From Agarophyton chilense (taxonomy: Eukaryota; Rhodophyta; Florideophyceae; Gracilariales; Gracilariaceae), in assembly GCA_030374765.1 (NCBI GenBank), contig JARGXX010000097.1:744001-808000 (forward strand): a stretch of 64,000 nucleotides of DNA, given 5' to 3'. Below, piece by piece: positions 12,258 to 48,831 of this stretch. The position numbers and the translations under genes were made by a program. Each line of letters starts with the position of its first letter. The stretch's first letter is position 1. The notes under the pieces were generated by a model, which was not told the DNA's origin, ran no database searches, and worked only from the letters and a program-made list of their open reading frames with translations.

Positions 12258-14299
12258 GGTTGTATCTACATTCCCGCCATATTAAATTCTCACGGCTGTG
12301 CAACCTCCTCACAGACTCGCGACAAAACGGGCACAATTCAGCCCGGTTTGTCACGAACCGGAGGGAGAATTCTGCAAGGGTGCTGCCACTGCCAAATTTT
12401 ATTCTTCACATGCTGCAGTTATGTGCTCACACCTGCAGGCGTACGGTCACTATTCTAGTCTTTTTTAAATGCGCAATCGCCAATTACATATGGTCTTACC
12501 GTAACTGTAACATTTTCAATGACAAGATCTGAAAATTTGATCCAAGCCATACTGTAATATCCCCTGGTTTGGTAAAGAAGACACCAGCGACAGAGTTCGG
12601 ACTGTTAATATGGTGCTTTTCGCGAAGGAAAAATAGATGGTACAGCTACAACACCAGCGAGCTGGAAATGGGTTGTAAAGTCATTACGCGCCAGCGAGAG
12701 CGAACAGTACACTGTATAATGAGGATAAGACATGGTAAATGAGGCAGCTTGAGAAGAACTTATGAGCTGACTCTATATTATAGCTCGCCTGGATCTCCGG
12801 CTAGAAAGTCCTAAGAGAGGAACAGAAGAGTCATGATACCCATGTTGTCTCCTTTTCTTGGAGTCGGAGCTTACCTCCGGTCCCTTATATACTGTGTAGC
12901 AGGGTGAGGTCCCGAGAAAATCGTTAACAAGTTTTTGTGGTAACCCACTTAGCCCAACCACTGTATAAGTATGGTCTCTAATGGAATTTCAACGATAAAG
13001 GGTAGTAACGCCCGACACGAGTATCGCCACAACATATGCCTTTTTGAATATGTAACTTCTCTAAGAAGGGTCGCAAATTCACTCGCGCGGTGGCAAGCCA
13101 CACAACCAGTGCCAACACGTGTTCCACTCATACATCCTGCCTCTTGGCATCATATGCGGACGCCTCTTTATTCCACAGTACCGAATGTACCGCTCACTAA
13201 TGAGTGACACACGCAACTTTGCGGTAAAGAAACCGTCAGAATGCTTACGTGTAGAATACTACATACTCACTTCGCTAAGCGCAAACTATATGGAGCTCAT
13301 GTCACGTGCACTATATATGCGATAACCGGCGTTCCGGATATTCATCTTTTTCTGGAATCCTCTTATTATATCCAGTTTTTTGGGGCGCCAGTTGATTGCC
13401 TCCCAGAAAGCTAACTTTGTTTGGAAAAGCCAGCGATTCACGTCACCGAACCAGCTCACTGGGCACGTGTACGATGCCACTCCATACGAGAGCGAGAGGA
13501 ACCCGACGAGGACGCGTAGAGAGCGGAGGCTGAACTTGGATACGAGAACGAGCCCGATTTGAAAGGCAAGCCGACTTCTTACGATCAGTTCTCAGCGGTG
13601 GGAGTCTCTCAGAAGTCCTTTGTGGGTTTTCTCAACCACCAAGTGCAGTGCCGGTCGAAGATCTCAGTTCGAATTCGCTGAGGCATTTCCCAAGAGACGC
13701 CGGCTTTCCCCGTGGACAAAGTTGACGGTGATCGTGCACAACTTCTTTCGAATATACGTAACTGTACGTCTCCTTGACGATCTTAGAGACAGCTCATCGT
13801 CAAGACTTTGCAGTGACCCCCTTATGCAAAAACAATCTCATTGAATTTGTGCCTTCACGTTGCCTTCTTTTGTTCTAGGTTTTTTTCATTCTCGGTTTGG
13901 AGTTTTTACTACCTTCGTAGCCCGTACTTAGAATTTAGATTTACCAATGAGTACTACTAGAAAGAAGTCTATTTCCCTGGGGAGTGGTAATTGGACGCAA
14001 CGAATATATCGCATGAGCTGCGAATGAATGATGTGCCTAATAGCTTCCCATTCATCCGCGTACGGAGGAAACCCATACCAACGGAGTCGATGCAGCAATT
14101 TTCTGATGTCTCAATGCTCACCATGTTCAAATATGCGATCCATATCATACACCTGGGCATTTCAAAATGCTTCCAATGGTGGTGCGAGACTCCTATTAAC
14201 AGGTTTGAAACTTCATGGAGTTGACCTAAGCGTCTCTGTGCTAGCAATCTTAGCGCCAAAAAGCGTTCTCTCATCGACAGTCGTTCTGCTTGCGGGGGC
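12258..14299. other. No supported gene
   Basis: Short overlapping ORFs on both strands, the longest 119 codons (13969-14328, minus), with no recognised domain. It flanks the decayed Ty3/gypsy element and may include its 3' end or LTR, which I could not delimit. Confidence 0.35.
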
Positions 14300-25849: not shown

Positions 25850-26629
25850 TGTCGCATTCTGGATGCACCCGAATTCAACCGTTCGAAATACTACGAAGTC
25901 CCGATACGGCATTCATAAGCTATTGCATGGGCTATACTCGATTACGAGAAGTTATGAGAAAAATTAATTCATGGAAAGGTTTGGACAGGAGAAATTTAAT
26001 TAAGAAGTACTGTATTTAGTGTACACTGTAAGGTGCCATCACCAAATACTTTATTTGGTATTATTTAGATAATTCTGTAGTGGCACGCCACGTGTATGCA
26101 CTACTGTACCGTACTTGCTTTGCCTCTTGGGACCTTAAAGGGCACAAGGCCCAGGTGAAGACGGCGAAAGGCCAACCAACAATCAAAGAAAACATCATCT
26201 TGGTGAGTCCTAGAAATCCTAATGTGGTTCACCACCAATGGGCACCTATAGTATCAGTTCTTAACCGTTCTGATCTATAGCTCTTGTTCCGAGGATACCC
26301 TCTACTGTTGCACATTTACCGCCCTTTTTCTACAGCTTTCTATGTGTGCGTGTGGTTATTTCTTTGTTGTTTTCTCTACTGTTACCTGGATATTTCTTTT
26401 ATCAAAAGGATTGTAGAACCGATCTCTTGTGCATTATGTACCGCCGTATCTGGACATCCGCCTCGTGAATACACGTATTACACCCAATGTTCAAGCACAC
26501 CTGGTTGCTTCCCGCACACGCTCTTCTTATCTAAGAACCGTCGCTCGCAAGGCGACACCCGCTCTTCGCGGTTATTTCTGTGCATATCCACTGCACCGAG
26601 ACCTCTACAGTCTTCAGTAGAATACCACA
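25850..26629 (+). repeat. 5' LTR of the older Ty3/gypsy element
   Basis: It starts TGTCGCATTCTGGATGC and ends GAATACCACA (TG...CA). It aligns along its length with 43576-44364, with many substitutions and small indels. The PBS follows 5 bp after its end. Confidence 0.85.
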
Positions 26630-30467: not shown

Positions 30468-31229
30468 CACGTGGCATCCATGTTCGAGAAGGGAATCACT
30501 GAGCCAGCTCAATCGGCTTGGGCATTCCCAGTGGTCCTTGTTCTCAAAGGAGATAGTTCTTTACGATTTTGCGTTGACTACAGAAAACTGAATGCAGTAA
30601 CTGTGAGGGATACGTACCCATTACCGCGTATGGATGAATGCATCGATAGTCTTAGAAAACCCAATTTTTTTACTACGCTTGACGCAAATTGGGGATACTG
30701 GAAGATACCAGTCGCCCCAGAAGGCCAATATAAGACTACATTTTCGTGTCTCTCAGGACTGTATCGCTTTAAGCGAAGGGCATTTGGTTTGACCAACGCC
30801 TCTGCGAATTTTCAGCGTGCTATCGACATAATATTATCACAGAATAAGTGGAAAACATGTCTCGTTTACTTGGCTGACATCATCATTTTCAGGAAGAATA
30901 TGGAGGACCATTTCGGGAATGTTGAGGGCATCCTCAAGAAGTTACAGCAAGCTGGAATTACCTTGAAGATCAAGATGTTTGAATGTTTCACGAACCAAGT
31001 GAAATACCTGGGACGCAGGATAAAGCCAGGGAAACTAAAAACGTAAGAAGTTCAGACCGCTGCGATTCATGAGTTCAAACCTCCGCGAACGCAGACGCAA
31101 TTGAGATCTTTTCTCGGACTTTTTAATGTCTACAGACGATTTGTGCCGCGCTATTCGCATATCGCTGCACCCCTTACTGCGTTATTGAAGAAGGGACAAC
31201 CCGTTAAATTGAAGGAATTCGGAGAAGCA
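30468..31229 (+). pseudogene. Reverse transcriptase, older element
   Basis: In the same frame as the protease after one stop it reads VLVLKGDSSLRFCVDYRKLN, YPLPRMDECIDSL, the palm segment and RAFGLTNASANFQRAIDIIL. The catalytic box reads LVYLADIIIF where LVYLDDIIIF is expected, so one metal-binding Asp is lost. Another in-frame TAA occurs at 31044-31046. Then EFKPPRTQTQLRSFLGLFNV continues to a TGA near 31227. Confidence 0.9.
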
Positions 31230-31760: not shown

Positions 31761-32520
31761 ATGAAAGTACGGGTAGACAGGACTAAGGACATGGATTCAG
31801 AAGTTCAACTCGAACGAATCTCTCTTGAAGAGCTATTACGTGAACAAAACACAGATGCCTTACGCGCGGCCATCCGCTCTCGTCTTAACGGGGGGGGGAC
31901 GTGTTGCCTTTTCGTCTCGACGATCGAGGAATCTTTTTTCGAACTGTTGAATCGTATGAGAAAGTCGTAAAACCACACGCTCTCAAGAGCAGAGTATTGC
32001 ATTTGGCACATTATTCGCAAATTTCTGGTCATCCAGGAAATACGAAGCTGTATCTAACCCTCAGAAGGGACTTTTGTTGGCCAACTTTGGCAATGGATTG
32101 TCATGCGACAGCTAAGATGTGCATAACGTGCGCGAGGAATAGAGTGAGGCTCTGGAAAAAGAAGAAGCCACTGAAGCTGTTCCCAGCAATCGCACCTCTA
32201 CAATATGTCAGAATTGACATACTTGGGGAATTGATCCGCTCGAAGAGGGGAAAGAGAAACCTTTTGGTAATTACTGATCGCTTCTCTAAGCTGGTTAAGA
32301 CAGTTCTGCTGAAACGGATTACTGCTTCCGTGATAGCACGAGCGTTCATCCACCATTGGGTTAATTACTACGGACCAACGGATACTCTGCTCTCAGATAA
32401 TGGCATGCAATTCGTTGCACGCTTTCTTCAAGATTTATGCAGGATACTTGGAGTTAAGAACGTGTTCACCACGACCAATACGACGCGTCAATGCGACGGG
32501 CACTCCCAGATATCTGAGTC
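31761..32520 (+). pseudogene. Integrase, older element, internally deleted
   Basis: The zinc domain (LHLAHYSQISGHPG...CHATAKMCITCARNR) and the first part of the core (YVRIDILGELIRSK, ITDRFSKLVKTVLLKRI, DTLLSDNGMQFVARF) are present. Just after KNVFTTTNTTRQCDG the sequence jumps to chromodomain, so the segment with the catalytic Glu and the C-terminal domain is gone. A run of nine G at 31890-31898 marks a frame change upstream of the zinc domain. Confidence 0.85.
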
Positions 32521-32678
32521 GGAGGACACGTTTTCGTGAACGCATTCGAGGTCATGGATGGCATGCAAAGGACGACAGTTTACTGTTTAAAGTGCGTTGG
32601 TATGGGGGTCAACCCGAAGACGATTCGTGGGAGCCCACACGCAGTATACCACGATCACTCGTGCTCGCGTACTTCTGA
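32521..32678 (+). pseudogene. Chromodomain at the end of pol, older element
   Basis: FRERIRGHGWHAKDDSLLFK followed by VRWYGGQPEDDSWEP and SIPRSLVLAY is a chromodomain. It is the hallmark of chromoviruses, where it guides integration to particular chromatin. It is fused to truncated integrase after the deletion. Confidence 0.8.
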
Positions 32679-32958: not shown

Positions 32959-34250
32959 TTAGGGATTCGGGTTATCCGCGTTCATACCCATCGAGGAGCG
33001 CAAGGAATTCAGCATTTGCTGTCGATTTCCTTGAACAAGGTGGGGAGGAATCCCAGCGTCTTCGAGGAACTGCCTAAGATTGCCAAGCTCGGCATCGTGG
33101 GAAGCCACTGTGGGTCGAACAGGCTCAGGCACAGCGCTCTGCATCGCTGCAGGAACCACTGGCTCTATGCCTTCGTTCTCACCCAAAGCGGGATCCTCGA
33201 GGATGATCTCTTCTGGCTCTTCGTCGTAATCGATTTCGTGCATCTCGTCAACTAGTGCGTCTGAATTTTGAGCAGTTGGATCGTGTATGAAACCAGTCGG
33301 CTGGGTTAGAGGCATTTCTCGCGGAGGTTCCCGTAGAACTTTGGCGTGATCACCTTCGATATGCTGGTTAGTCCAGGGGTCGTACCAGACGAAGTCAACG
33401 CCGGGACCGGTTCTTCCTGGTGAATAGTCGCGACGAGGACGTCCTCTAGCCTGCTGTTCAGAAGGAACAAGGGTCCAGTCAATCTGGTCAATGACATCCA
33501 TTAGGCGCAGAAAATCTTCGTGATTGGCACGTGAGCCCAGGACGAGCGACAGATCGAGTTCTCTGGAAAGTTGTCGAGCAATCGGGCTCATATATCACAA
33601 ACGATATTTGTCGTACACATCCCAAAGAATGAACACGACCATCTTCGCGATGAATTAATTGTAGACGACTACCCAATAACCGGAAAACGGATCATTCGCG
33701 AGTAAAGAACCTACGTAGGTGATCGAAGGAGGTAGCTTCACAAGACAGCCACTAGGACTCTCGATCTCAAGCCAGTATTCAAGAATCGGCACGTAGCGCC
33801 CAACCCGCGAGTTATACCGAATTCGGTCTATTTCGAGCATCTGGTATGGAACTAAGTATCCCAGTCGAAATCTGGTAGGTAGTGCCAACCGGGAGGATTC
33901 CCAATACGGACTATACCGTTTGCGGAGATATCGGAATTCCGCGCGTAATTGAGAACGGTCGGAACAGAGGGCCACGTTGGATACTCCACGAACACCGCGC
34001 CACCTTTGGACATCCAAACCCGCTAGGTTCTCTGCATATGAGTTAACCTCGCCATTTGCTCTGGCACACCAGGTATCGAATTGCCAATCCACATTGAGAG
34101 GCACCGAGCCGATAATGCGGCGTAATCGATGGTACACCAGACGGGTTAACCGTTCGCGCGCATCGAGCAATCTCTCGTTTCCAAAGCGACTGATCGCACT
34201 GTTTGGAAGGGCGCAATGGCTCAGCCAATCTGATGTGAACAACGAATGCC
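32959..34250 (-). pseudogene. Antisense ORF of the older element, main part
   Basis: On the strand opposite to gag-pol, 34250-33655 and 33591-32959 are in one frame. They are separated only by TAA (33655-33657) and TGA (33595-33597). The product aligns along its length with the antisense ORF of the young element. Shared blocks include LRAEFRY versus LRAEFCY, GYLVPYQMLEIDRI versus GYILPYQNTEIERI, and LPPSITYVGSLLANDP versus LPPVFTYVGSSFLNDP. Others are REPPREMP versus RHAPREVP, and a similar C-terminal helix after an acidic stretch. The 5' part was displaced to 43045 and beyond by the young insertion. No known domain. Confidence 0.8.
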
Positions 34251-34255
34251 ATGGG
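34251..34255. repeat. Target site duplication, left copy (ATGGG)
   Basis: ATGGG directly precedes the young element and is repeated at 43040-43044 directly after it. Confidence 0.95.
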
Positions 34256-35119
34256 TGTAGGACAATGCCCCTAAGGGGGAAAACCTACGAAGACGTCCGG
34301 ATCTTCCTCTCACGAGGTAACCGGCTCGGTAGAGCCCTCCCAGGGATCGGCGCGCAATGCCGGGTGTAAGCCGGAGCCGAACCGTCGCGACGGGCGCAGG
34401 GAGGCTGAAAGAAGCCGAGAATATCCGCCGAAGCGGTGCTTGCGTATCCTCTGAGGAGGCAAAACCCACGAGAGTGGCGAGCACCACAGGCGTCAGTGCG
34501 AGCCGCAAGAGCGGGAATTGCCCAATGAAGGGGAGGAAAAGGGAAGGAAAATGGGAACGGAGGCAAGAGGGCGAGGTTGACCACGAGTCGCAAGAGGGGA
34601 CTCGGGAATAGCCGGCACTGCAAGGTGTAGCAAACCGTATACACGGGCGGAACCACGAAAGTGGGAATAGATACCCAACACACGAAGGCTGCTTGAACGT
34701 CCAAGGGGGTTGGGAAGCCGTGCACCACGGGAAATCCCTCCGTAAGGAGTTGTATATCCGCGCAGGCGGTTCGACCCAGAGCCAAGATCTGGAAGACCAA
34801 GATCACCCTTGTTGGGGAGACTTTACTGGACCGGCGGCCGCGAGGCCGGCGGCCTAAGTACTGTAGTCACCGTAGAATAGAATAAGTAAAGTCTATCCTA
34901 AATAGCTAAATGTCCGTCTAACAAAGGGGCCAATCTGGCGGCCACGTGTCGCGCGGGCGCTTCGGCCACGTGTATGGCACCCGGTCCCGCCGGTGCATCA
35001 CCGGCGTTCCGGCCATCGCCATGAAAACGGATTACTCCTACTCATAACGCGGTTGCACGCCGGAGGCTCCGGAAAATACTTAAGTCCCCAGAAACCTCCC
35101 TGGAGGACGTTGCTCTTCA
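34256..35119 (-). repeat. 3' LTR of the young element
   Basis: On the plus strand it runs TGTAGGACAATG...GTTGCTCTTCA. It differs from the other LTR at about two dozen positions by hand count (roughly 97% identity). Confidence 0.95.
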
Positions 35120-35132
35120 TATACCCCCCCTT
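35120..35132 (-). promoter_or_regulatory. Polypurine tract of the young element
   Basis: On the minus strand AAGGGGGGGTATA abuts the 3' LTR (TGAAG...). It serves as plus-strand DNA primer during reverse transcription. The older element has the analogous GGGAGGGATA directly before its 3' LTR. Confidence 0.85.
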
Positions 35133-35166
35133 AAGACAGGGCGAACACCTCGAAGAGGAAGTCGGC

Positions 35167-36942
35167 ATGGCAGCTCTTCATGATAAGAGCGCGTCCGACA
35201 CCGGGTCTCGGGAAACCAACACACCTTCACCAAGGATCCCACGCACGCTCTCCGCATCCGATTCCATCCACAGCACACCAACACGCACCATGTTCAACCC
35301 CGACCGTCATAACACATCCGCGACTCCCGCCCTTGGCGGTTCCACCGGCTTCCGGTCCGCGCCCCACCCTGGGGATGTTACCAACCTCGCGTACGAAGAC
35401 CGCCGTATTGGCGCCCGCTTTCGCGGACAGGCGGACCCACCGCAGTGGCCGACCTACGACGCCCTTGTGGGTGCAAATCTGAGAACTCGGCATGGCTCCG
35501 CAATGTTGCCGTATGCGCCTTGGTTTCACCCATTGGCTGTCCGCGACGAGCATTTGATCCAATCCTACACCGATAATTCGGAGATGCTCCCGGGCGACCT
35601 GCCCGGCGTGGTGACCATGTCCTGGGATTGGCGTAATCGCATCGCCATCGCGGTACACCACATACTCCGCCGACGCGGTGAATCCTCTGCGGAGGCTCAG
35701 GCCGCGCTTGTGCGGATCGCTTATCTCAGGCACCAGCGGGCGCCTTTCGAGTTCCCGATACCGCCAAAGGTCGAATTCGACGTCCACCTTTACCGCACTC
35801 GCGGGGAAATGTCGTACTGTGACCGTCTTAACGGATTGGAAACCCTCGCTTGGAGGGGCACACCGATCGCTCGGCAAGAAGCCCTTTGCTGGGGACGACC
35901 GATTCTTCGGGCAGAGTTCTGCTACCAACCGCGGCAGTCGCGCTCGAACTTCCTTCAGAACTTCATCCGCGATGAGCGGCGTTGGCGGGCCCGGACCGGG
36001 TATATCTTACCGTACCAGAACACGGAGATTGAGCGCATCGCGCCTGCGTACCGACGTGGTCGGTACGTCAGTCTTCCAGACTGGTGGTCCTCCTTGGAGG
36101 CGTGCTGGGGTTGCTTCATTGAGCTGCCCCCAGTCTTCACCTATGTAGGGTCGTCGTTCTTGAACGATCCCCAGTCGGAGTGGTAATCCGTCGAGGTAAG
36201 CGAATGGGCCGTCCGCACTGCGGCTTTTATCCTCGCTGAGGCGGACGACCAATACCGATTGTGGTACGTGCCACCGCGTGTGCAGGCTGCGATCCGCCGT
36301 TTGGACATGTGCATCCCCCTCGGGGGCGAGGCGAACGAAGAAGAGATGCTGGGCCTTCTCGACTTTGTGGAGGGGGTCCAGTGGGATGAGGTCCCGCTGG
36401 AGAACTCCCAACGCATTCAACCGCGTCGCGGGTCTGGCCCCGGATTCGGGAGGAATACAGCGCTAGCGGGGGATTTCATCTACTTCGACCCCTGGGAGTA
36501 CCACAAGATCAGCGGCGAGGAAGTGGAAGCCAACCGGCATGCGCCGCGTGAAGTCCCGGCCGACCACCCGCGAGGGTATGTCGACTCGAGCGACTATTAC
36601 TGCGGCTATGCGGATGGTGACCTGATGGTCGACAACGAACCGGGGGATTCGGGTTACGCTCCGATGGAGGATGACAAGTCCGGCGAGGCCGCTGAGGGGT
36701 CCGTTGAATATGGTGGGGCGGCTCCATCTGGGGCTGCTGATGCCGTGCGAACGGATTCCTATCCGACTCCATCGGTGGCGGGCCCGCCCGCAACTGCCGC
36801 TGGCGCGGAGCGGGGCGAGGTCATCGCGCCCTTCCTTCGGGAGGTGGGGCTTCGCCCTTCCGAGATCTCGGGTGATGTGGCCGCCATGCGGGATGCCTTA
36901 GTCAACCGCCTGGGCGGGGGTCCACCTCGTTCGGAGGAATGA
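35167..36942 (+). CDS. Antisense ORF of the young element, one internal stop
   Basis: From ATG 35167 (48 bp inside the LTR edge) to TGA 36940-36942 the frame is open for 591 codons except for one TAA at 36184-36186. It splits into a 339-codon part and about 251 codons that continue in the same frame. The N-terminus is Ser/Thr/Pro-rich and probably disordered. Then comes a conserved block (YAPWFHPLAVRDEHLIQSY), a helical part (IAIAVHHILRRRG), a Trp/Tyr/Arg-rich core and the conserved ending VFTYVGSSFLNDPQ. After the stop come FILAEADDQYRLWYVPP, FIYFDPWEY, a long acidic/Ala-rich linker and a final helix (FLREVGLRPSEISG). No membrane segment, nuclease, protease or envelope-like signature is visible. 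Homology to the older element's antisense ORF shows it is a shared element gene. The stop may be a mutation or a two-protein arrangement. Confidence 0.78.
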
Positions 36943-37274: not shown

Positions 37275-38018
37275 TTATCCCTCTTGGGCGTTTACCAGCG
37301 TGGCTGGGAGTGCGGTCCCCGCAAGGCGGTGGTATCGCATTACCGCGGAGTGCAGGAGGTGCTCGATGGGCTCCGGGGTGTCCCACTCCGGCCCGTATCC
37401 GTACCAGCGGGTTCGGTACTGGAGTACCCCGTGCTCATCGTAGCTATGTCCGACGATTCGGTCGAGGACGTACTCCTGCACGTAAACTTGCCGGCCTTGC
37501 CGGGTGGTGGTGACCCGAGCCTCAGCGCCGCGTGGTTCTGGGCTCTTCGTCGCCTGTTCCGGGTCACCCGGTTTTTCATTCCGCTCTGCGGTTGTTGCCG
37601 GGTGCCCGGGGCTGCCGTACCGCTTCGCGGAAGTTGCCGGCGCGGCCGGGTTGTGTTTCCGCTGGGCGGTAGGGGCTTCCCTGAAGTCCGCTCTTACCGC
37701 GAGTTTGCGGGGGTCCTTCCGTCTTGGTGACGGTTCGCCGGAGGCCTCCGCTTGATTTGCGGCATGCGGCGTTCCCATTGGTGGGCAGTTTCCGCCGTGC
37801 GGTGCGCCGCGGGCGGTGAGTGGTTCACCTTCCCGGCGATCCACCTCCGTGGGGTGGCTGTCAGCCAACGACCGGGATGCCGGGTGCCCATTGGTCCGAT
37901 CTCCCGCCCGGGTCACGTGACCTTGAGGACGGGTGGTCGGGCCGTCGCGGACGGTTGGCTCCGATTGTTCGGCAAAGGAGGCGGTTTTCGACTTGTCGTC
38001 GCGCCCCTTTTCCCCCAT
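37275..38018 (-). CDS. Chromodomain ORF, remnant of pol end
   Basis: This 247-codon ORF has a true ATG. Residues 1-170 are charged and Pro/Ala-rich. Residues about 178-231 form a chromodomain: VYVQEYVLDRIVGHSYDEHG, then YRTRWYGYGPEWDTPEP and a final helix. In chromoviruses this domain ends the integrase; here no integrase precedes it. A 700-bp open frame upstream (38051-38779, minus, other frame) has no recognised domain and may be linker. Confidence 0.75.
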   Translation of the reverse strand: MGEKGRDDKSKTASFAEQSEPTVRDGPTTRPQGHVTRAGDRTNGHPASRSLADSHPTEVDRREGEPLTARGAPHGGNCPPMGTPHAANQAEASGEPSPRRKDPRKLAVRADFREAPTAQRKHNPAAPATSAKRYGSPGHPATTAERNEKPGDPEQATKSPEPRGAEARVTTTRQGRQVYVQEYVLDRIVGHSYDEHGVLQYRTRWYGYGPEWDTPEPIEHLLHSAVMRYHRLAGTALPATLVNAQEG

Positions 38019-38744: not shown

Positions 38745-40013
38745 TCATGACCCGAACAATTCGGTAGCCCATCCAGCAATGGCTGGGCTTTTGAAATTCA
38801 CCAACTCAGGTGGTATCTTTCCGACGTCAGTCGTGCAGAACCGACGGTAGTCGATGACAACAATCCAAGAACCATTGGATAACTTAACCAGTACTGCTGG
38901 TGGCGACACACACGGCAGTGTGGATAAGTTCAGCGTAGACCGGGGACCTCCAACGAGATTATCCCCCTCCTCAGAGTGACTCATTCCGGTTGAACCGGTA
39001 CGATCCCCTTGAAGGGTAAAGATAGACATGGGGTGAGGAGCAACTCTTCCAATGACTTGGTTCCTAACCAGATACTGGTGTTTCTGTCCAAAGTTGGAAA
39101 CACATACACAAAACGACTTGTCGGGCTCAATGTGAACCATTCCATCCGCGAAAGCGAGTTGATGCCTGTTCGACAGTGATGGTATCGGTTGAACGATTCG
39201 AGTACCGTGCTGACTAGAACTGACACGCACCCAAGAGTGGGACTTTGGCGGAATGCAAATCGACTCGTCGACACGAAGCTTTGTAGACTCGCAAAAAGCG
39301 GCGGGGAACTCCTGTGCAGCAGGAAGAGGAACATGCTTCTTCGATGCACGCTTCGGCGAACGGCGGACGATGGGAATAGAGGAACCATCGTCCAATTCCA
39401 CCCGCTTTAAGCGGGGTACCATCGCCTCGACGAAACGGTCGCAAAAATCACAACCCAAGATGAGAGGGGCGGGGAGTGACCGACAGACAATAAAGTGCAG
39501 CTTCACGACGCAGGGTCCTAAGCGTACCACCAAATCGATCACTCCAACCGTTTCTAACGGGTTGATACCAGCGTCAGCGGCGTCTAATGCTACGCCACGG
39601 CGGATTTGCGACTGCAAAGCAGGTGGTAGGATAGATTCCACGACGAAGTTCGGTTCTGTACCTGTATCCAACACAGTGAGAAAACGCACCATGAACTTGG
39701 TAGTAAGGCCTAGGTCAGCGTAAACTTTAAAGTTTCGCTTCGCCATGACCATGACTCTTTCCGGGAGCCGGTTGTGATGTACCCGTTTCCACGGTCGACG
39801 TAAAACACCAAAGTGTTCCGAGTCCACGTCTGAGACGGCCTGTTTCCTTGAGAAGATTTTGACCGGGGAGCGAGGCGGGGACGCCTCGGGCGTCGTCAGC
39901 CTCAACTCTGAGGACGCCTCTCCCGAAGGGGAGACTCCCTCTATTCTTTTCCCTGTACAGGGTGCTGGTCGGGCGAAGGCCCGACTTCCTCGGCAACGAG
40001 TGCATGATTCCAT
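38745..40013 (-). CDS. Retroviral-type aspartic protease with RT stub
   Basis: This 422-codon ORF is in the -1 frame relative to gag. It carries the protease active site VLDTGTEP (Asp116-Thr-Gly), the second-lobe motif LILGCDFCDRF (about 184-194), the conserved SIPIVRR segment and the pre-RT region (IPPKSHSWVRV). It ends in RT motif 1 (NGSWIVVIDYRRF) followed by about 30 unrelated residues and a stop. The protease would cut Gag and Gag-Pol. It overlaps the zinc-knuckle frame by 73 bp and is probably made as a gag fusion by frameshifting rather than from its own ATG. Confidence 0.88.
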   Translation of the reverse strand: MESCTRCRGSRAFARPAPCTGKRIEGVSPSGEASSELRLTTPEASPPRSPVKIFSRKQAVSDVDSEHFGVLRRPWKRVHHNRLPERVMVMAKRNFKVYADLGLTTKFMVRFLTVLDTGTEPNFVVESILPPALQSQIRRGVALDAADAGINPLETVGVIDLVVRLGPCVVKLHFIVCRSLPAPLILGCDFCDRFVEAMVPRLKRVELDDGSSIPIVRRSPKRASKKHVPLPAAQEFPAAFCESTKLRVDESICIPPKSHSWVRVSSSQHGTRIVQPIPSLSNRHQLAFADGMVHIEPDKSFCVCVSNFGQKHQYLVRNQVIGRVAPHPMSIFTLQGDRTGSTGMSHSEEGDNLVGGPRSTLNLSTLPCVSPPAVLVKLSNGSWIVVIDYRRFCTTDVGKIPPELVNFKSPAIAGWATELFGS

Positions 40014-40354
40014 TGCACGGTAGCTACCGCAGGAGCGGGTTGAGATCCACCAGCGTGGTTTGGCGCTGGTGCGGCGCGTGCCGGCTGAGCCGGTTTGTAC
40101 CGAGAATTCGGAGTGTGAGCCAATGCGTTGGGGAAGTCCGTCTTCGCGCGGAGATATGACGTGAGTGGCACGGAGCCCTTCTCCTGCGGGGAGAGGGCTT
40201 CGTAATTATCCACCACTCGCGCCATATCGCGTAGCGATAAAAGGCATTGCGGGGAGGTGTGCCCGCGCTCGTAGCACAAGTGGCACACCAACGTCACTCC
40301 CGCGTTTCGCGTTACGGCATTCCGAGCATCGGTGTATCTTCTGGGTTCCCGGTT
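39941..40354 (-). CDS. gag zinc-knuckle segment of the young element
   Basis: It is in the same frame as the gag capsid ORF, after a TGA at 40355-40357. It holds an intact CCHC knuckle (CHLCYERGHTSPQC), then the helix NYEALSPQEKGSVPLT and a Pro/Ala-rich tail up to TAG at 39941. It would bind element RNA in the particle. Its expression needs readthrough or repair of the TGA. Confidence 0.75.
   Translation of the reverse strand, partial: NREPRRYTDARNAVTRNAGVTLVCHLCYERGHTSPQCLLSLRDMARVVDNYEALSPQEKGSVPLTSYLRAKTDFPNALAHTPNSRYKPAQPARAAPAPNHAGGSQPAPAVATVQWNHALVAEEVGPSPDQHPVQGKE
39947..39953 (-). promoter_or_regulatory. Candidate -1 ribosomal frameshift heptamer
   Basis: On the minus strand the gag frame reads CAG GGA AAA GAA TAG. 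This contains G GGA AAA (X XXY YYZ) three bases before the gag stop TAG (39943-39941). A -1 slip leads exactly into the protease frame. Twelve bases further a GC-rich hairpin (TCTCCC, loop CTTC, GGGAGA; 39934-39919) follows. Confidence 0.7.
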
Positions 40355-42052
40355 TCAAACCCATCCAGGGCGCTGACTTCGTGTCATTCCTTTCGAGTAC
40401 GGCATACGGGGGGCCGGAGTGCGGCGGTCATTACGATAAAAGACCTGCCCGTTCTCCGTGTCCCTTGCGGTTGAGTCAACCGAGCCATCCGTCGTAGACG
40501 GTAATTCCGTTGTCGGAATAGATAAACCATCGTGATGGATGACATTCGTATTGTCATAACCCTGTTTGGGGATGCCATCCGTCGCAAATGACGGTGAAGA
40601 AGAGTCCGACTCAAGCAACAATGCTTTAGCGGCCTTCGACCGGGTTCCCGGATTGCGTGCACGTAGTGCATCTCCATCTGCGCGGGCAAACTGTACGAGT
40701 TCAAGGTAGGTCACCTTCGGCTCTTGTTCCCTGTAACGGGCCACAAGAGTCTTGATGGCTGGATCCAAGCCATCAATGAACATCGTACAGCGTTCCCCAG
40801 CGGGGTATACATTACCACAACTGTGGAAAGCCTTATTCAGGCGTACCGTGTAATCGGTTTCGAGCTCGCTGGAGCGTTGTCGAGTGTCTCGCAAAGCGAG
40901 TATCGCCGCTTGTATCGCGGATTTGGTTGCGTAGGAACGCAGGATGTACTGCACGGCCTCGGGCCAGCAGGTCACACCTCCTTCGGAGGCTCGCGACGAG
41001 CCCCGAACAGACAAAAACTGATCCTCAGCGACACCCCGTAGAAAGTAGGGTAGCGCCACGTAGGCTTGTCCTTCGTTCATTCCGAGTATATCGGCTTCCG
41101 CTACAAAGCGGTGTAGGAAATCCAAGACCAGAATTGGATCATCCCCAGTAAACGACTGGTTACGAAGTGAAAGCTGCATCCGCTTGATGCAGTCTTTCAC
41201 TTTACCCGTGTCACGCGGTGTCCGACCTAAAGAGGAATCTTCTAGCCGGTAATACCGGTAGAACAGGAGTGTCCTGTACAGAGGGTTGGTGGGCTTCAAG
41301 GATTTGAGGCCCGGATGTCGCCGACCCTTGGGGCGCGACCGGATGGCCCCGTAGGTGGCAGAGGACCGCTTTGAGCGGGAAGAGCGCCCATAACGATCCT
41401 GTGGGTCATTGCTCACCGACGAATCGGAACTCTCCGAGTCACTCGGTTTACCGTCCGACTCAGATGATGAGTCGGACGGGTGTCCGTGCTTACGGTTAGA
41501 ATCCCGGTTCTTCCGGCTCTTCCAGTTCCGCGACTGGGTCTCTCGATGAGAGACAACCGGTCTAGCCGCGTTCGCGGGCGAGGTTAACGTCCTCTCGACC
41601 GACTCAAGTCGGCTTCGGAGACGCTCGAAGCGATTCTCCAGACCTTCTGCGAAGGAAGACGGAGCGCCACAACACTCGAGTAGTGTATTGACGTCCGACC
41701 GCAATACGCGGATATCCTCGGCTAACTCACTCGTAGGGGGGTTAGCGAGGCTTCCTCGTAAAGAGGTGAATTCCCTCGAGAGGGTATTGTGAGCAGCCCG
41801 CAGGGAGCGGAGCTGCTCTTCCAAGCGTACAACTCGCGCTTGGTCGACCAACCGCGGAGGCGGAGAAACCACCGTTGCGACGGTCGTTAACCCGGAATCG
41901 GGCTGCGGGTCTTCAGTGCCGGTGACCGGTATCTCCCGGGAAGCCGGTGTTGGAGCCAGGGCCTGTGGAACATCAGTGCCCCTGGCATCACCGCTTTGGC
42001 GGGAACGGCTGCGTGTTGCAGGAGGCTCCATGCTAGGCGGTTTCCTTGGCAT
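40355..42052 (-). CDS. gag (capsid) of the young element
   Basis: This 565-codon ORF starts from the first ATG after the LTR (42052-42050); the frame is open further up into the LTR but without ATG. The N-terminal part is Pro/Ser/Arg-rich, with a heptad-like segment (RVVRLEEQLRSLRAAHNTLS). Then comes a Ser/Asp-rich linker (SDSSSESDGKPSDSESSDSS), and then the capsid-like domain with FTGDDPILVLDFLHRFVAEA, YILRSYATKSAIQAAILALR, FIDGLDPAIKTLVARYREQE and LELVQFARADG. It forms the virus-like particle. Apart from the terminal TGA it is intact over more than 1.6 kb, which argues for recent activity. Confidence 0.88.
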   Translation of the reverse strand: MPRKPPSMEPPATRSRSRQSGDARGTDVPQALAPTPASREIPVTGTEDPQPDSGLTTVATVVSPPPRLVDQARVVRLEEQLRSLRAAHNTLSREFTSLRGSLANPPTSELAEDIRVLRSDVNTLLECCGAPSSFAEGLENRFERLRSRLESVERTLTSPANAARPVVSHRETQSRNWKSRKNRDSNRKHGHPSDSSSESDGKPSDSESSDSSVSNDPQDRYGRSSRSKRSSATYGAIRSRPKGRRHPGLKSLKPTNPLYRTLLFYRYYRLEDSSLGRTPRDTGKVKDCIKRMQLSLRNQSFTGDDPILVLDFLHRFVAEADILGMNEGQAYVALPYFLRGVAEDQFLSVRGSSRASEGGVTCWPEAVQYILRSYATKSAIQAAILALRDTRQRSSELETDYTVRLNKAFHSCGNVYPAGERCTMFIDGLDPAIKTLVARYREQEPKVTYLELVQFARADGDALRARNPGTRSKAAKALLLESDSSSPSFATDGIPKQGYDNTNVIHHDGLSIPTTELPSTTDGSVDSTARDTENGQVFYRNDRRTPAPRMPYSKGMTRSQRPGWV

Positions 42053-42153
42053 TGGCCACACCGTCTCGACGGAAGAATAGAAAGCAAACCGGTGAGACCG
42101 GAGAAAACCTGTTAAACGGAAAACAACCTCAGAGAGGACACAAGCGGTCTTGA

Positions 42154-42172
42154 CTTCTAAGTCGGGAGACCA
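42154..42172 (-). promoter_or_regulatory. Primer binding site of the young element
   Basis: On the minus strand TGGTCTCCCGACTTAGAAG starts 3 bases after the 5' LTR. It matches the older element's PBS in 12 leading bases and most of the rest. Confidence 0.75.
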
Positions 42173-42175
42173 ATT

Positions 42176-43039
42176 TGTAGGACAATGCCTCCAAGGGGGA
42201 AAACCCACGAAGACGTCCGGATCTTCCTCTCACGAGGTAACCGGCGCGGTAGAGCCCTCCCAGGGATCGGCGCGCAATGCCGGGTGTAAGCCGGAGCCGA
42301 ACCGTCGCGACGGGCGCAGGGAGGCTGAAAGAAGCCGAGGATATCCGCCGAAGCGGTGCTTGCGTATCCTCTGAGGAGGCAAACCCCACGAGGGTGGCGA
42401 GCAAGACAGGCGTCAGTGCGAGCCACAAGAGCGGGAATTGCCCAATGAAGGGGAGGAAAAGGGAAGGAAAATGGGAACGGAGGCAAGAGGGCGAGGTTGA
42501 CCACGAGTCGCAAGAGGGGACTCGGGAATAGCTATTACTGCCGGGTGTAGCAAACCGTATACACGGGCGGAACCACGAAAGTGGGAATAGATACCCAACA
42601 CACGAAGGCTGCTTGAACGTCCAAGGGGGTTGGGAAGCCGTGCACCACGGGAAATCCCTCCGTAAGGAGTTGTATATCCGCGCAGGCGGTTCGACCCAGA
42701 GCCAAGATCTGGAAGACCAAGATCACCCTTGTTGGGGAGACTTTACTGGACCGGCGGCCGCGAGGCCGGCGGCCTAAGTACTGTAGTCACCGTAGAATAG
42801 AATAAATAAAATCTATCCTCAATAGCTAAATGTCCGTCTAACAAAGGGGCCAATCTGGCGGCCACGTGTCGCGCGGGCGCTTCGGCCACGTGTATGGCAC
42901 CCGGTCCCGCCGGTGCATCACCGGCGTTCCGGCCATCGCCGTGAAAACGGATTACTCCTACTCATAACGAGGTTGCACGCCGGAGGCTCCGGAAAAAGCT
43001 TAAGTCCCCAAAAACCTCCCTGGAGGACGTTGCTCTTCA
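42176..43039 (-). repeat. 5' LTR of the young element
   Basis: 864 bp, same ends as the other LTR. In element orientation a TATA-like CTATT(G/T)A stretch and an A/T-rich block precede the GC-rich R/U5 part. Confidence 0.95.
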
Positions 43040-43044
43040 ATGGG
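43040..43044. repeat. Target site duplication, right copy (ATGGG)
   Basis: Identical to 34251-34255. It marks resumption of the older element's antisense ORF. Confidence 0.95.
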
Positions 43045-43260
43045 ATACCACCTGGTAGGCGACCGGCGACCACATATTGATTTATCAGAGCTTCGTCGCG
43101 GACCGCTGCAGGGAAAACCCAAGGCGATCGCGCGTATAATGCAGAGTGTTGCAAGGGGTTTCAGCCGATGAAGTCCGCGTAGTGTGGGAACCTCTGTACG
43201 GAGGAGGACGCATGTTGCAGAACAGCTGCTGTGGAAAAAAATTACGCAGGACCAAAACTG
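43045..43260 (-). pseudogene. Antisense ORF of the older element, N-terminal part
   Basis: The minus strand reads HYADFIG, stop, NPLQHSALYARSPW, then VFPAAVRDEALINQYV. This aligns with TYDALVGANLRTRHGSAM and FHPLAVRDEHLIQSYT of the young element's antisense ORF. It joins the part at 34250 once the young element and one ATGGG copy are removed. A TGA lies near 43161. Confidence 0.75.
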
Positions 43261-43563
43261 GAAGCCGATTGCGGCAAAAGGGCAGTTCGAGATGTTGGAG
43301 CGAAACCTCGAGGCGTTGCAGAAGTGTGCTGAATATGAGGGTTGTCGAAACCTTCATAGGACCTAGGTGGATTGACCACGTAAGACGGAAGTTTGCTCAT
43401 CGCAAGATCTCAGATACAAGAAAAGCTTGAAGAATGGAATAGCGAGATAATCGCAAGGTGGATTGGAAAAACACAAGGTTGTGATACGAAAAGAAGAATC
43501 GGAATATCCGATAAGTGCGGTGCGATTTCTTTTGCACAATGCGTTGCGGGTGCTCCGCTCCTA

Positions 43564-43575: not shown

Positions 43576-44364
43576 TGTATCATTCTGGATGCACCTGAGT
43601 TCTACCGTTCGAAATACTACGTAGTCGTGATACGGCCTTCATAAGCTATTGCATTGGCGATAATCGATTACGAGAAGCTATAAGAAGAATTACTTCATGG
43701 AAAGGTTTGGACAGGATACATTTAATTAAAGAATACTGTATATAGTGCACACTTTCAGGTGCCATCACCAAATGTTCTATTTGGTATTATTAAGATAATT
43801 GTGTAGTGGCACGCTAAGTGTATGCATTACTATACAGTGCTTGCGTTGCCTCTTGGCACATGAAAGGGCACAAAACCCAGGTGAGCACGACAAAAGACCA
43901 ACTAACAAGCAATCTAAACACCATCTTAGTGAGTCCTAGAAATCTTAAAGTAATGAACAAGAAAAGAGCACCTATAGTATCAGTTGTTAACCATTATGAG
44001 CTATAGCTCTTGTTCCGAAAATACCCTCTACTGTTGCTCTTTTACTGCCCTTTTTATACAGGTTTCTTTGTGTGTGTTTGTGTGGGTATGTTTTTGTTTT
44101 GTTTTTATCTCTACTGTTACCTGGGTATTTGTGTTGGCGCAAGGAGTTTTGAGCCGATATCGTTTGCTTAACGTACTGCCGTACCTGGAAATCCGCCTCG
44201 TGAATACACGTATTATCCCCATTGTTCATGCACACCTGGTTCCCTTTCGCACACTCCCTTCTTATCTAAGAACAGTGTCTCGCAAGGCGACACCCGCTCT
44301 TCGCGGTTAGTTCTGTTGATACCCACTGCACCTAGACCCCTACAGTTTTCAGTGGAATACCACA
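43576..44364 (+). repeat. 3' LTR of the older Ty3/gypsy element
   Basis: 789 bp, TGTATCATTC...GGAATACCACA. Aligned with the 5' LTR it shows many more differences than the young pair, so the insertion is much older. Confidence 0.85.
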
Positions 44365-46636: not shown

Positions 46637-46701
46637 AGTTTTGTTTGCTTGTATTTTATCCGTCTTCAATCATCACCAACCGAGTCGCTGGTTTTGAAAC
46701 C

Positions 46702-47319
46702 ATGAAGCTTGCTTTTTCTCTTATACTCACTGTCGCGTTCATTGCGACGAGTCCAACTTTGGCTGATGAGGTTCCATCATGGGCAACCAATAAGTATTTG
46801 ACTTATCAATGGTGCGAGGTTGACAGCGAGAATCTCTGTGATTTCGTCCTGGAAGGTGTATATCCACGTTACGATCATGTTCAGTGGGGAACTGGAAACT
46901 TTTCATTGAATGGATGGATTTCAGGAGCATTCACTCCGAAAATCGTCAAGAAGCACGACGATTATCAAACAACTATCGGATACGTCAACTCCATGGATAA
47001 TCTTCGTGATGTGTTCTACTGCAAAGGTGTGGACTTGGGATACACCTGGGACACCCAATGTGACTACAAGACCATTCCGGGCCGTTTGTTCAGAACTGTA
47101 CCTCTCCCCGGTGTTCGAGGGTCGGGCATTACGCGTGAAAAAGGCTCAATAATGGGAACTCACGTACCAAATGGTGCTTGCATCCCGATTTACATAACTT
47201 CGTATCAAGTTCTTGATACCACTGTCTCACCTCCGAGAGTGAAAGAAAATGTTCATATGTCCGCAAGACAAGCGCGTATCCTCCATCAATGTGTGTTGAT
47301 GTACACAGAATTCTACTAA
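46702..47319 (+). CDS. Small secreted protein, unknown family
   Basis: This 205-codon ORF has ATG at 46702; the frame is open further up but without ATG. Signal peptide MKLAFSLILTVAFIATSPTL with likely cleavage after ALA-type residues near 21. The mature part is about 184 residues with six Cys (TYQWCEVDSENLCDF, VFYCKGVD, DTQCDYK, GACIPIY, LHQCVL), consistent with disulphides. It is Tyr/Trp-rich and looks globular, without membrane segments. Extracellular location is inferred. No domain recognised. It is convergent with the secreted-protein gene at 48208-48747. Confidence 0.7.
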   Translation: MKLAFSLILTVAFIATSPTLADEVPSWATNKYLTYQWCEVDSENLCDFVLEGVYPRYDHVQWGTGNFSLNGWISGAFTPKIVKKHDDYQTTIGYVNSMDNLRDVFYCKGVDLGYTWDTQCDYKTIPGRLFRTVPLPGVRGSGITREKGSIMGTHVPNGACIPIYITSYQVLDTTVSPPRVKENVHMSARQARILHQCVLMYTEFY

Positions 47320-48207: not shown

Positions 48208-48747
48208 TTAAAGCCCAGCCCGACGGAATTGAGCCTCCAGGCAATAGTCAATTCCAAACGCAGCCGCCAAAGTCTGGAGCGATATGCGGACGGAAGAAAG
48301 CTGAGGAAATACCTGACCCTTTGAATCAACCGGGCAGTTGCCATTTTCCTGCGCCCACACAAGCGCTTGAAAAACGTTAAACTGCTTTTTGAATGCTCTT
48401 CGTTCTTCAACATTACCTCCAAACCTGTACTTGCGTCCATCTGCCACAATGTAACTGGCGCCTTTGTTGATTGCCCCCCATCTCTTTCGAACGATTTCCA
48501 AACGCATGTGACTCGGTATCAACTCCGGAGGAAGTCCCTCCACTCTATCTGGAGAGTTGGTGCCCAGCGTCACATGGATAAGGTTGTTTGTGCCGACTAT
48601 GAACTCGCTTCCGCCGCCATCGCCGTCACAGAGTAGATTTCCAGGCGCAAGTTCTTCCCATATTTCGAAGACTGGTTGTTGCCTGATGCATGTAGCATAC
48701 GACCAAGCACAAAGCGCGGCCAAGGTAGTGGATAAAAGAAACTTCAT
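48208..48747 (-). CDS. Small secreted protein, unknown family
   Basis: 179 codons from the ATG at 48747. Signal peptide MKFLLSTTLAALCAWSYATC with a hydrophobic core. The mature part is mostly hydrophilic with four or five Cys (TCIRQQP, NLLCDGDGGG, NGNCPVDS, IDYCLEA). No domain recognised and no further membrane segment. Similar size and architecture to the gene at 46702, but I see no sequence similarity between them. Confidence 0.68.
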   Translation of the reverse strand: MKFLLSTTLAALCAWSYATCIRQQPVFEIWEELAPGNLLCDGDGGGSEFIVGTNNLIHVTLGTNSPDRVEGLPPELIPSHMRLEIVRKRWGAINKGASYIVADGRKYRFGGNVEERRAFKKQFNVFQALVWAQENGNCPVDSKGQVFPQLSSVRISLQTLAAAFGIDYCLEAQFRRAGL

Positions 48748-48831
48748 ATCTTCAACGTGTCTCACAGGGATAGTACGCTTCCCGTTGGATTCGAGATGAT
48801 CGAAATCGGAATGGGTGCTTCTTAATGCGCA

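What the first reader, a model, noticed from the sequence alone, without database searches (positions are those of the whole stretch)
32959..36942. Conserved ~590-codon antisense ORF in two Ty3/gypsy elements
Between the chromodomain and the 3' LTR, on the strand opposite to gag-pol, both the older (32959-34250 plus 43045-43260, minus) and the young element (35167-36942, plus) encode homologous long proteins. Similarity runs from the N-terminal third (WFHPLAVRDEHLIQSY versus VFPAAVRDEALINQY) through the core (LPPVFTYVGSSFLNDP versus LPPSITYVGSLLANDP) to the last helix. The two copies are well diverged yet share amino-acid motifs and indel-free blocks, which suggests protein-level selection. 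Antisense ORFs near the 3' end are known in some plant Ty3/gypsy elements, but this family has no domain I recognise. It may control the element (for example by antisense or protein-mediated copy control) or help it spread.
Basis: partly seen in the sequence, partly recalled or inferred. Interest (0 to 1): 0.88.

Follow-up and report, generated by a model that had tools for sequence, protein, structure and literature searches.

The report
Antisense accessory gene of red-algal retrotransposons
Jumping genes in a red seaweed carry an extra protein gene, written backwards next to their end, that is conserved as a protein and present in hundreds of copies; it probably helps or controls the element, as unrelated backward genes are thought to do in some plant and fungal elements.

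Summary
The host is a red alga (Gracilariales by named relatives), not a plant. Two nested Ty3/gypsy elements each carry a homologous ORF antisense between the chromodomain ORF and the 3' LTR. Both window copies are dead, but the genome holds hundreds of related copies. Four element families (A, old O, B, C) carry it in the same layout; a remote fifth (D) has unseen context. Between families third codon positions are near chance while positions 1 and 2 stay 50-72% identical, so the antisense frame is under protein-level selection; every sense frame is interrupted. In 19 of 20 C integrase copies examined the ORF lies antisense at the expected place. Its ATG lies 45-176 bp from the inner edge of the 3' LTR, which suggests an LTR antisense promoter (inferred). 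The protein has a confidently modelled helical core; no Pfam, PHROG, NCBIfam, PDB-sequence or fold match was found. It resembles the antisense accessory ORFs of Retand, Grande and Boty in layout, but has no TRP28 (Retand) match. Function is inferred: a regulatory or helper protein. Against: within-family selection is weak and no transcript was seen.

The parts
34256..35119 (-). 3' LTR of the young (family A) element, 864 bp; inferred seat of the antisense promoter
   Evidence: 97.2% identical to 42176-43039; TG...CA ends; ATGGG at 34251-34255 and 43040-43044
35167..36942 (+). Family A antisense ORF (aORF), dead copy with one in-frame stop at 36184-36186; ATG 47 bp from the inner LTR edge
   Evidence: 91.5% identical in protein to the open copy L061:1682-3457
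37275..38018 (-). Chromodomain ORF of the young element; its end faces the aORF end across about 330 bp
   Evidence: Pfam Chromo E 1.9e-5, 24.9 bits, just under the 25.1 cut-off
38745..42208 (-). Young element gag (40355-42208) and protease-like pol remnant (38745-40013)
   Evidence: ORFs; names by resemblance to the L061 ORFs, read by eye; no Pfam match above cut-off
42176..43039 (-). 5' LTR of the young element; primer-binding-site-like TGGTCTCCCGAC beside it (tRNA not matched)
32959..34254 (-). Old element (family O) aORF, main piece, with two in-frame stops
   Evidence: tblastn with B aORF 50% over 431 aa, E 7e-128; translation
43041..43298 (-). Old element aORF, N-terminal piece cut off by the nested young element, with two in-frame stops
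   Evidence: tblastn with B aORF, 44% over 88 aa; frame read
32400..32678 (+). Chromodomain remnant of the old element
   Evidence: Pfam Chromo E 3.5e-4, 20.9 bits, below the 25.1 cut-off
30471..31046 (+). Old element reverse transcriptase piece
   Evidence: Pfam RVT_1 E 3e-20
31901..32539 (+). Old element integrase piece
   Evidence: Pfam Integrase_H2C2 E 5e-13, rve E 2e-10
25855..26629 (+). 5' LTR of the old element, approximate bounds
   Evidence: 83.5% identical to 43581-44364
43581..44364 (+). 3' LTR of the old element, approximate bounds
13386..13771 (+). Separate fragment of a family B-like aORF
   Evidence: tblastn with B aORF, 48% in two pieces

Best explanation
The ORF is a protein-coding accessory gene of a red-algal lineage of chromodomain Ty3/gypsy retrotransposons (shown by sequence). 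It sits antisense between the chromodomain ORF and the 3' LTR in four element families (shown) and was probably in their common ancestor (inferred from agreeing similarities; no tree was built). It is most likely transcribed from an antisense promoter in the 3' LTR (inferred from the ATG lying 45-176 bp from the inner LTR edge). Its product, 557-618 residues in the four copies read, has a disordered N-terminus, a mainly helical core of about 330 residues, an acidic linker and C-terminal helices of low model confidence. It most likely acts in the nucleus on the element's own transcription, chromatin state or pre-integration complex (inferred by analogy with other antisense accessory proteins).
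For: Copies: 104 scored A matches of 1903 candidates; 169 places with the A core pattern at up to 3 mismatches; 150 scored matches to the O piece and 107 to P0006, assigned to O, B and C by identity bands; lists overlap and are capped. Codon positions, six family pairs: identity 50-66% (pos 1), 55-72% (pos 2), 28-38% (pos 3), chance 25-28%. Every sense frame of the six copies examined has 2-27 stops. Position: aORF antisense near integrase in 19 of 20 C copies chosen by integrase, and facing a chromodomain ORF in A, B, C and O across about 280-400 bp. Pol and aORF similarities agree domain by domain (figures in the full report). ATG 45-176 bp from the LTR edge in A, B, C, O (edge by LTR alignment in the window A copy, by CA plus polypurine motif in the others). 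Core model pLDDT 86.6, pTM 0.86. Homologues at 61% in Gracilariopsis chorda and 46% in Gracilaria domingensis.
Against: No transcript or protein was seen. Both window copies are dead. Family A variants are close to neutral against a context-matched expectation. Many sampled copies have in-frame stops: 9 of 18 C, 11 of 31 A. Some A copies lack integrase but keep the ORF, so the gene is not tied to autonomy. No domain or fold match supports any particular function. Presence per element was sampled only for family C.
Confidence: 0.72

Rival explanations
1. The antisense transcript, not the protein, is the working part: convergent transcription from the two LTRs makes double-stranded RNA that limits copy number, and the ORF is a by-product.
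For: Tail-to-tail layout with the ATG close to the LTR; dsRNA is discussed as a possible role in plant elements (PMC7264820, text read).
Against: An RNA role does not explain conserved amino acids with third codon positions near chance across four families.
Confidence: 0.12
2. Captured host gene carried as a passenger, without a role in the element's cycle.
For: No known domain; the weak within-family constraint in A.
Against: Present in 19 of 20 C copies sampled and retained through the divergence of four families. No single-copy host homologue was noticed in the capped match lists, but none was specifically sought.
Confidence: 0.08
3. Apparent similarity is only the shadow of a conserved sense-strand coding region or of general nucleotide conservation.
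For: One sense frame is nearly open in family A (2-3 stops, longest stretch 411 codons), and sense-frame translations do match each other between families, as a shadow would from either side.
Against: The near-open frame has 7-10 stops in B, C and O; third positions of the antisense frame are near chance, which nucleotide-level conservation cannot give.
Confidence: 0.02
4. Envelope-like or particle protein rather than a nuclear regulator.
For: Position between pol and 3' LTR is where env lies in retroviruses.
Against: Antisense orientation; hydrophilic overall (GRAVY -0.38 to -0.62 in A, B, C, O); no Pfam match. No transmembrane predictor was run.
Confidence: 0.06

Closest known systems
Retand-lineage antisense ORFs with the TRP28 domain (PF04195), flowering plants
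   Same: Antisense ORF between pol and 3' LTR; TRP28-encoding antisense ORFs in 97% of clusters; regulatory role proposed (PMC11963269, abstract and passages)
   Different: Retand is a non-chromovirus plant lineage; here the elements have chromodomain matches and PF04195 is not among matches at E up to 1 in 10 members
Grande GENE23 (maize); RIRE2; PvRetro13 ORF2
   Same: Antisense accessory ORF before the 3' LTR; GENE23 reported nuclear and transcribed antisense from a promoter upstream of it (PMC7264820, text read)
   Different: Plant elements; their proteins were not compared directly here
Boty brtn (Botrytis cinerea)
   Same: Additional antisense gene in a non-plant Ty3/gypsy element (PMC7264820; title of Zhao et al. 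2011 in the reference list of PMC8365987)
   Different: Fungal; its protein was not compared here
Antisense genes of HTLV-type retroviruses
   Same: Antisense gene with a promoter in the 3' LTR (as stated in PMC7264820; antisense genes also in PMC11963269)
   Different: Analogy of layout only; no homology tested

Membership tests
Antisense additional ORF between pol and 3' LTR (aORF-3R) | ORF antisense to gag-pol, between pol and 3' LTR | tested here: met
   Families A, B, C, O; 3' LTR shown by a repeat pair only in the window A and O copies
Antisense additional ORF between pol and 3' LTR (aORF-3R) | Present in most copies of the family | tested here: met
   19 of 20 C integrase copies; not sampled this way for A, B, O
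Antisense additional ORF between pol and 3' LTR (aORF-3R) | Conserved as a protein | tested here: met
   Between families; within family A inconclusive
Antisense additional ORF between pol and 3' LTR (aORF-3R) | Antisense transcription, nuclear product | not testable with these tools
   No RNA or protein data held
Retand lineage | TRP28 domain PF04195 in the antisense ORF | tested here: not met
   Not among Pfam matches at E up to 1 in 10 members, nor for D and P0008 at E up to 0.5
Retand lineage | Non-chromovirus element | tested here: not met
   Chromodomain matches in A (24.9 bits), B (28.5), C (27.2), O (20.9); cut-off 25.1, so A and O fall below it
Chromovirus (Ty3/gypsy with chromodomain) | RT-RNase H-integrase order with a chromodomain after integrase | tested here: met
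   B and C, with the chromodomain in a separate ORF from integrase in these copies; A copy L061 has no integrase match

The most novel reading that the evidence does not exclude
Red-algal chromoviruses acquired their own antisense accessory protein, independently of plants and fungi, with a core fold not yet in the PDB. It has diversified into at least five families (591, 557, 560, 618 and 821 residues in the copies read) and acts in trans on element chromatin or transcription, serving also integrase-less derivatives. Antisense accessory genes before the 3' LTR would then be a convergent solution that LTR elements reach repeatedly.
Probability: 0.35. Interest if true: 0.78.

Novelty: new variant of a known kind. 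Interest (0 to 1): 0.62.

Why it matters
The role of antisense accessory ORFs in LTR elements is an open question in plants and fungi (PMC7264820). A protein family without their known domain, in a distant lineage of eukaryotes and conserved through deep divergence, makes convergence testable and offers a compact, confidently modelled domain to assay. It also gives a context for unnamed proteins of red-algal genomes that are its homologues, such as Gracilariopsis chorda BWQ96_03215 (whose own genomic context was not seen here).

Full report
Where it is. The window is G000:C97:744001-808000 of a 79.8 Mb, 135-contig genome. Named relatives of the ORF are from Gracilariopsis chorda and Gracilaria domingensis, and of the remote D ORF from Agarophyton chilense, so the host is taken to be a gracilarialean red alga. 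The published Gracilaria chilensis assembly is 76.07 Mb in 138 contigs (PMC10388701, passages), similar but not the same; the species is left open.

Anatomy. The young element (family A) lies on the minus strand, LTRs 34256-35119 and 42176-43039, 864 bp, 97.2% identical, with target duplication ATGGG. It is inserted in the antisense ORF of an older element (family O) on the plus strand (LTRs 83.5% identical). The A ORF (35167-36942) has one in-frame stop at 36184-36186; the two O pieces have four. Open copies of 591 codons exist elsewhere (L002, L061).

Families. Genome searches list 104 scored matches of 1903 candidates for the A query, 150 of 1361 for the O piece, 68 of 1833 for P0005, 107 of 1485 for P0006 and 115 of 1677 for the remote D; rows of different searches overlap, only the best candidates are scored, and families were assigned by identity bands. 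The A core pattern occurs at 169 places. D has an 821-residue ORF; it matches A at 23% over 274 columns, E 5e-12, and the A2 profile at 97.7% probability over 284 columns.

Same layout. B (L064 and L062) has gag, RT, RNase H, integrase and chromodomain in sense, then the aORF antisense. C (L063) has RT, RNase H, integrase and chromodomain in the same order. Of 20 integrase matches picked by hand about every seventh row from the 150, 19 have the C aORF in the 1.2 kb examined, always antisense to integrase (two of the 19, L069 and L076, interrupted); in the twentieth (L078) only a 33% relative was found, on the other strand. The ATG lies 45-176 bp from the inner LTR edge, just past the polypurine tract; the edge is set by LTR alignment in the window A copy and by the CA-polypurine motif in L061, L062, L063 and L035. 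The aORF end faces the chromodomain ORF end across about 280-400 bp.

Selection. For all six pairs among open A, B, C and O copies, codon position 3 identity is 28-38% against 26-28% for shuffled codons (the 38% is the closest pair, B-O), while positions 1 and 2 keep 50-72%. dS is saturated; dN is 0.40-0.77. Each sense-strand frame of six copies contains 2-27 stops. Within families, unweighted pooled pN/pS is 0.63 for A (31 copies, chosen by similarity to the window protein, hence biased towards conservation) and 0.51 for C (17 loci sampled through integrase plus L063; L069, L076 and L078 dropped as rearranged), lowest of six frames in each, though one sense frame reaches 0.63 in C and 0.72 in A. 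Copies with in-frame stops: 11 of 31 A, 9 of 18 C. Against a context-matched expectation, family A gives 0.84 for singletons, 0.74 for variants in two copies, 0.93 for three or more and 0.62 for six or more (27 variants); 14 nonsense singletons against 17.8 expected. So within A there is no clear constraint signal.

Inheritance. Pol identities by stretch: protease-RT, A-C 62, B-O 53, A-B 53 (with RNase H), B-C 51, A-O 49, C-O 46; RNase H, A-C 68 and B-O 63 against A-O 60, C-O 56-57, B-C 55 (longer stretch); integrase, B-O 66 against C-O 58 and B-C 54; a linker stretch of C-O is 35. aORF identities: A-C 42, B-O 51, others 35-37. Both give the grouping A with C and B with O; the B-O lead is narrow in protease-RT, O is a decayed copy, and no tree was built.

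Protein. No Pfam, NCBIfam or PDB sequence match, and no PHROG match under E 0.05. Two searches of a database of 5.8 billion proteins gave nine relatives, fragments included, and one search with D gave one; in each only the roughly 8000 candidates sharing most words were scored. Conserved blocks are LRAEFRY, ERR-R-R-G and VPYQ. The modelled core of 336 residues has pLDDT 86.6 and pTM 0.86 and is mainly helical; the full-length model (mean pLDDT 64.6) has disordered N-terminal and linker regions. No structural match was found for the full model or, by VIA-align on 107 Foldseek candidates, for the core. The segment before the C-terminus is acidic (pI 4.1-4.5 in A, B, C, O).

Integrase-less A copies. 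In L061 the RT matches only profile positions 80-205 of 205 and no integrase matches. Its deletion junction occurs at 34 places with up to 3 mismatches. Matching coordinates by hand, 26 of the 34 lie beside an aORF row; 15 of those 26 rows have no stop within the matched part, which covers only the first 340 or so codons. So derivatives probably mobilised in trans kept the aORF; recency alone could also explain this. The other 135 A places were not examined for integrase.

Mechanism. Shown: a protein-coding frame, selected between families, antisense, in four families. Inferred: presence in their ancestor, transcription from the 3' LTR, nuclear regulatory or helper action. By analogy, Grande GENE23 is reported nuclear with its own antisense transcription (PMC7264820, text read) and Retand's TRP28 is predicted to bind DNA (PMC11963269, abstract and passages). 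No paper on an antisense ORF in red-algal elements appeared among the rows listed; these show the top rows of an open-licence library only.

Noticed in passing
G000:C68:3138133, 3147330, 3156527: Three A aORFs spaced exactly 9197 bp: tandem elements that may share LTRs, or an assembly artefact.
   Followed up: no
L061:4073-7699: Family A copy with an incomplete RT match and no integrase; its deletion junction occurs at 34 genome places, an integrase-less subfamily.
   Followed up: partly
L085:210-2675; L062:3580-6381: Remote D family with an 821-residue ORF and at least 115 matches; type of element carrying it not determined.
   Followed up: partly
window 13386-13771: Fragment of a B-like antisense ORF from another element.
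   Followed up: no
window 46645-47319 and 48208-48765: Two ORFs with starts that look like signal peptides by eye and no Pfam match above cut-off; possibly host genes.
   Followed up: no
G000:C34:486755, C114:3559, C115:3293, C115:49873: aORF rows with identical scores, suggesting a recent duplication or overlapping contigs.
   Followed up: no
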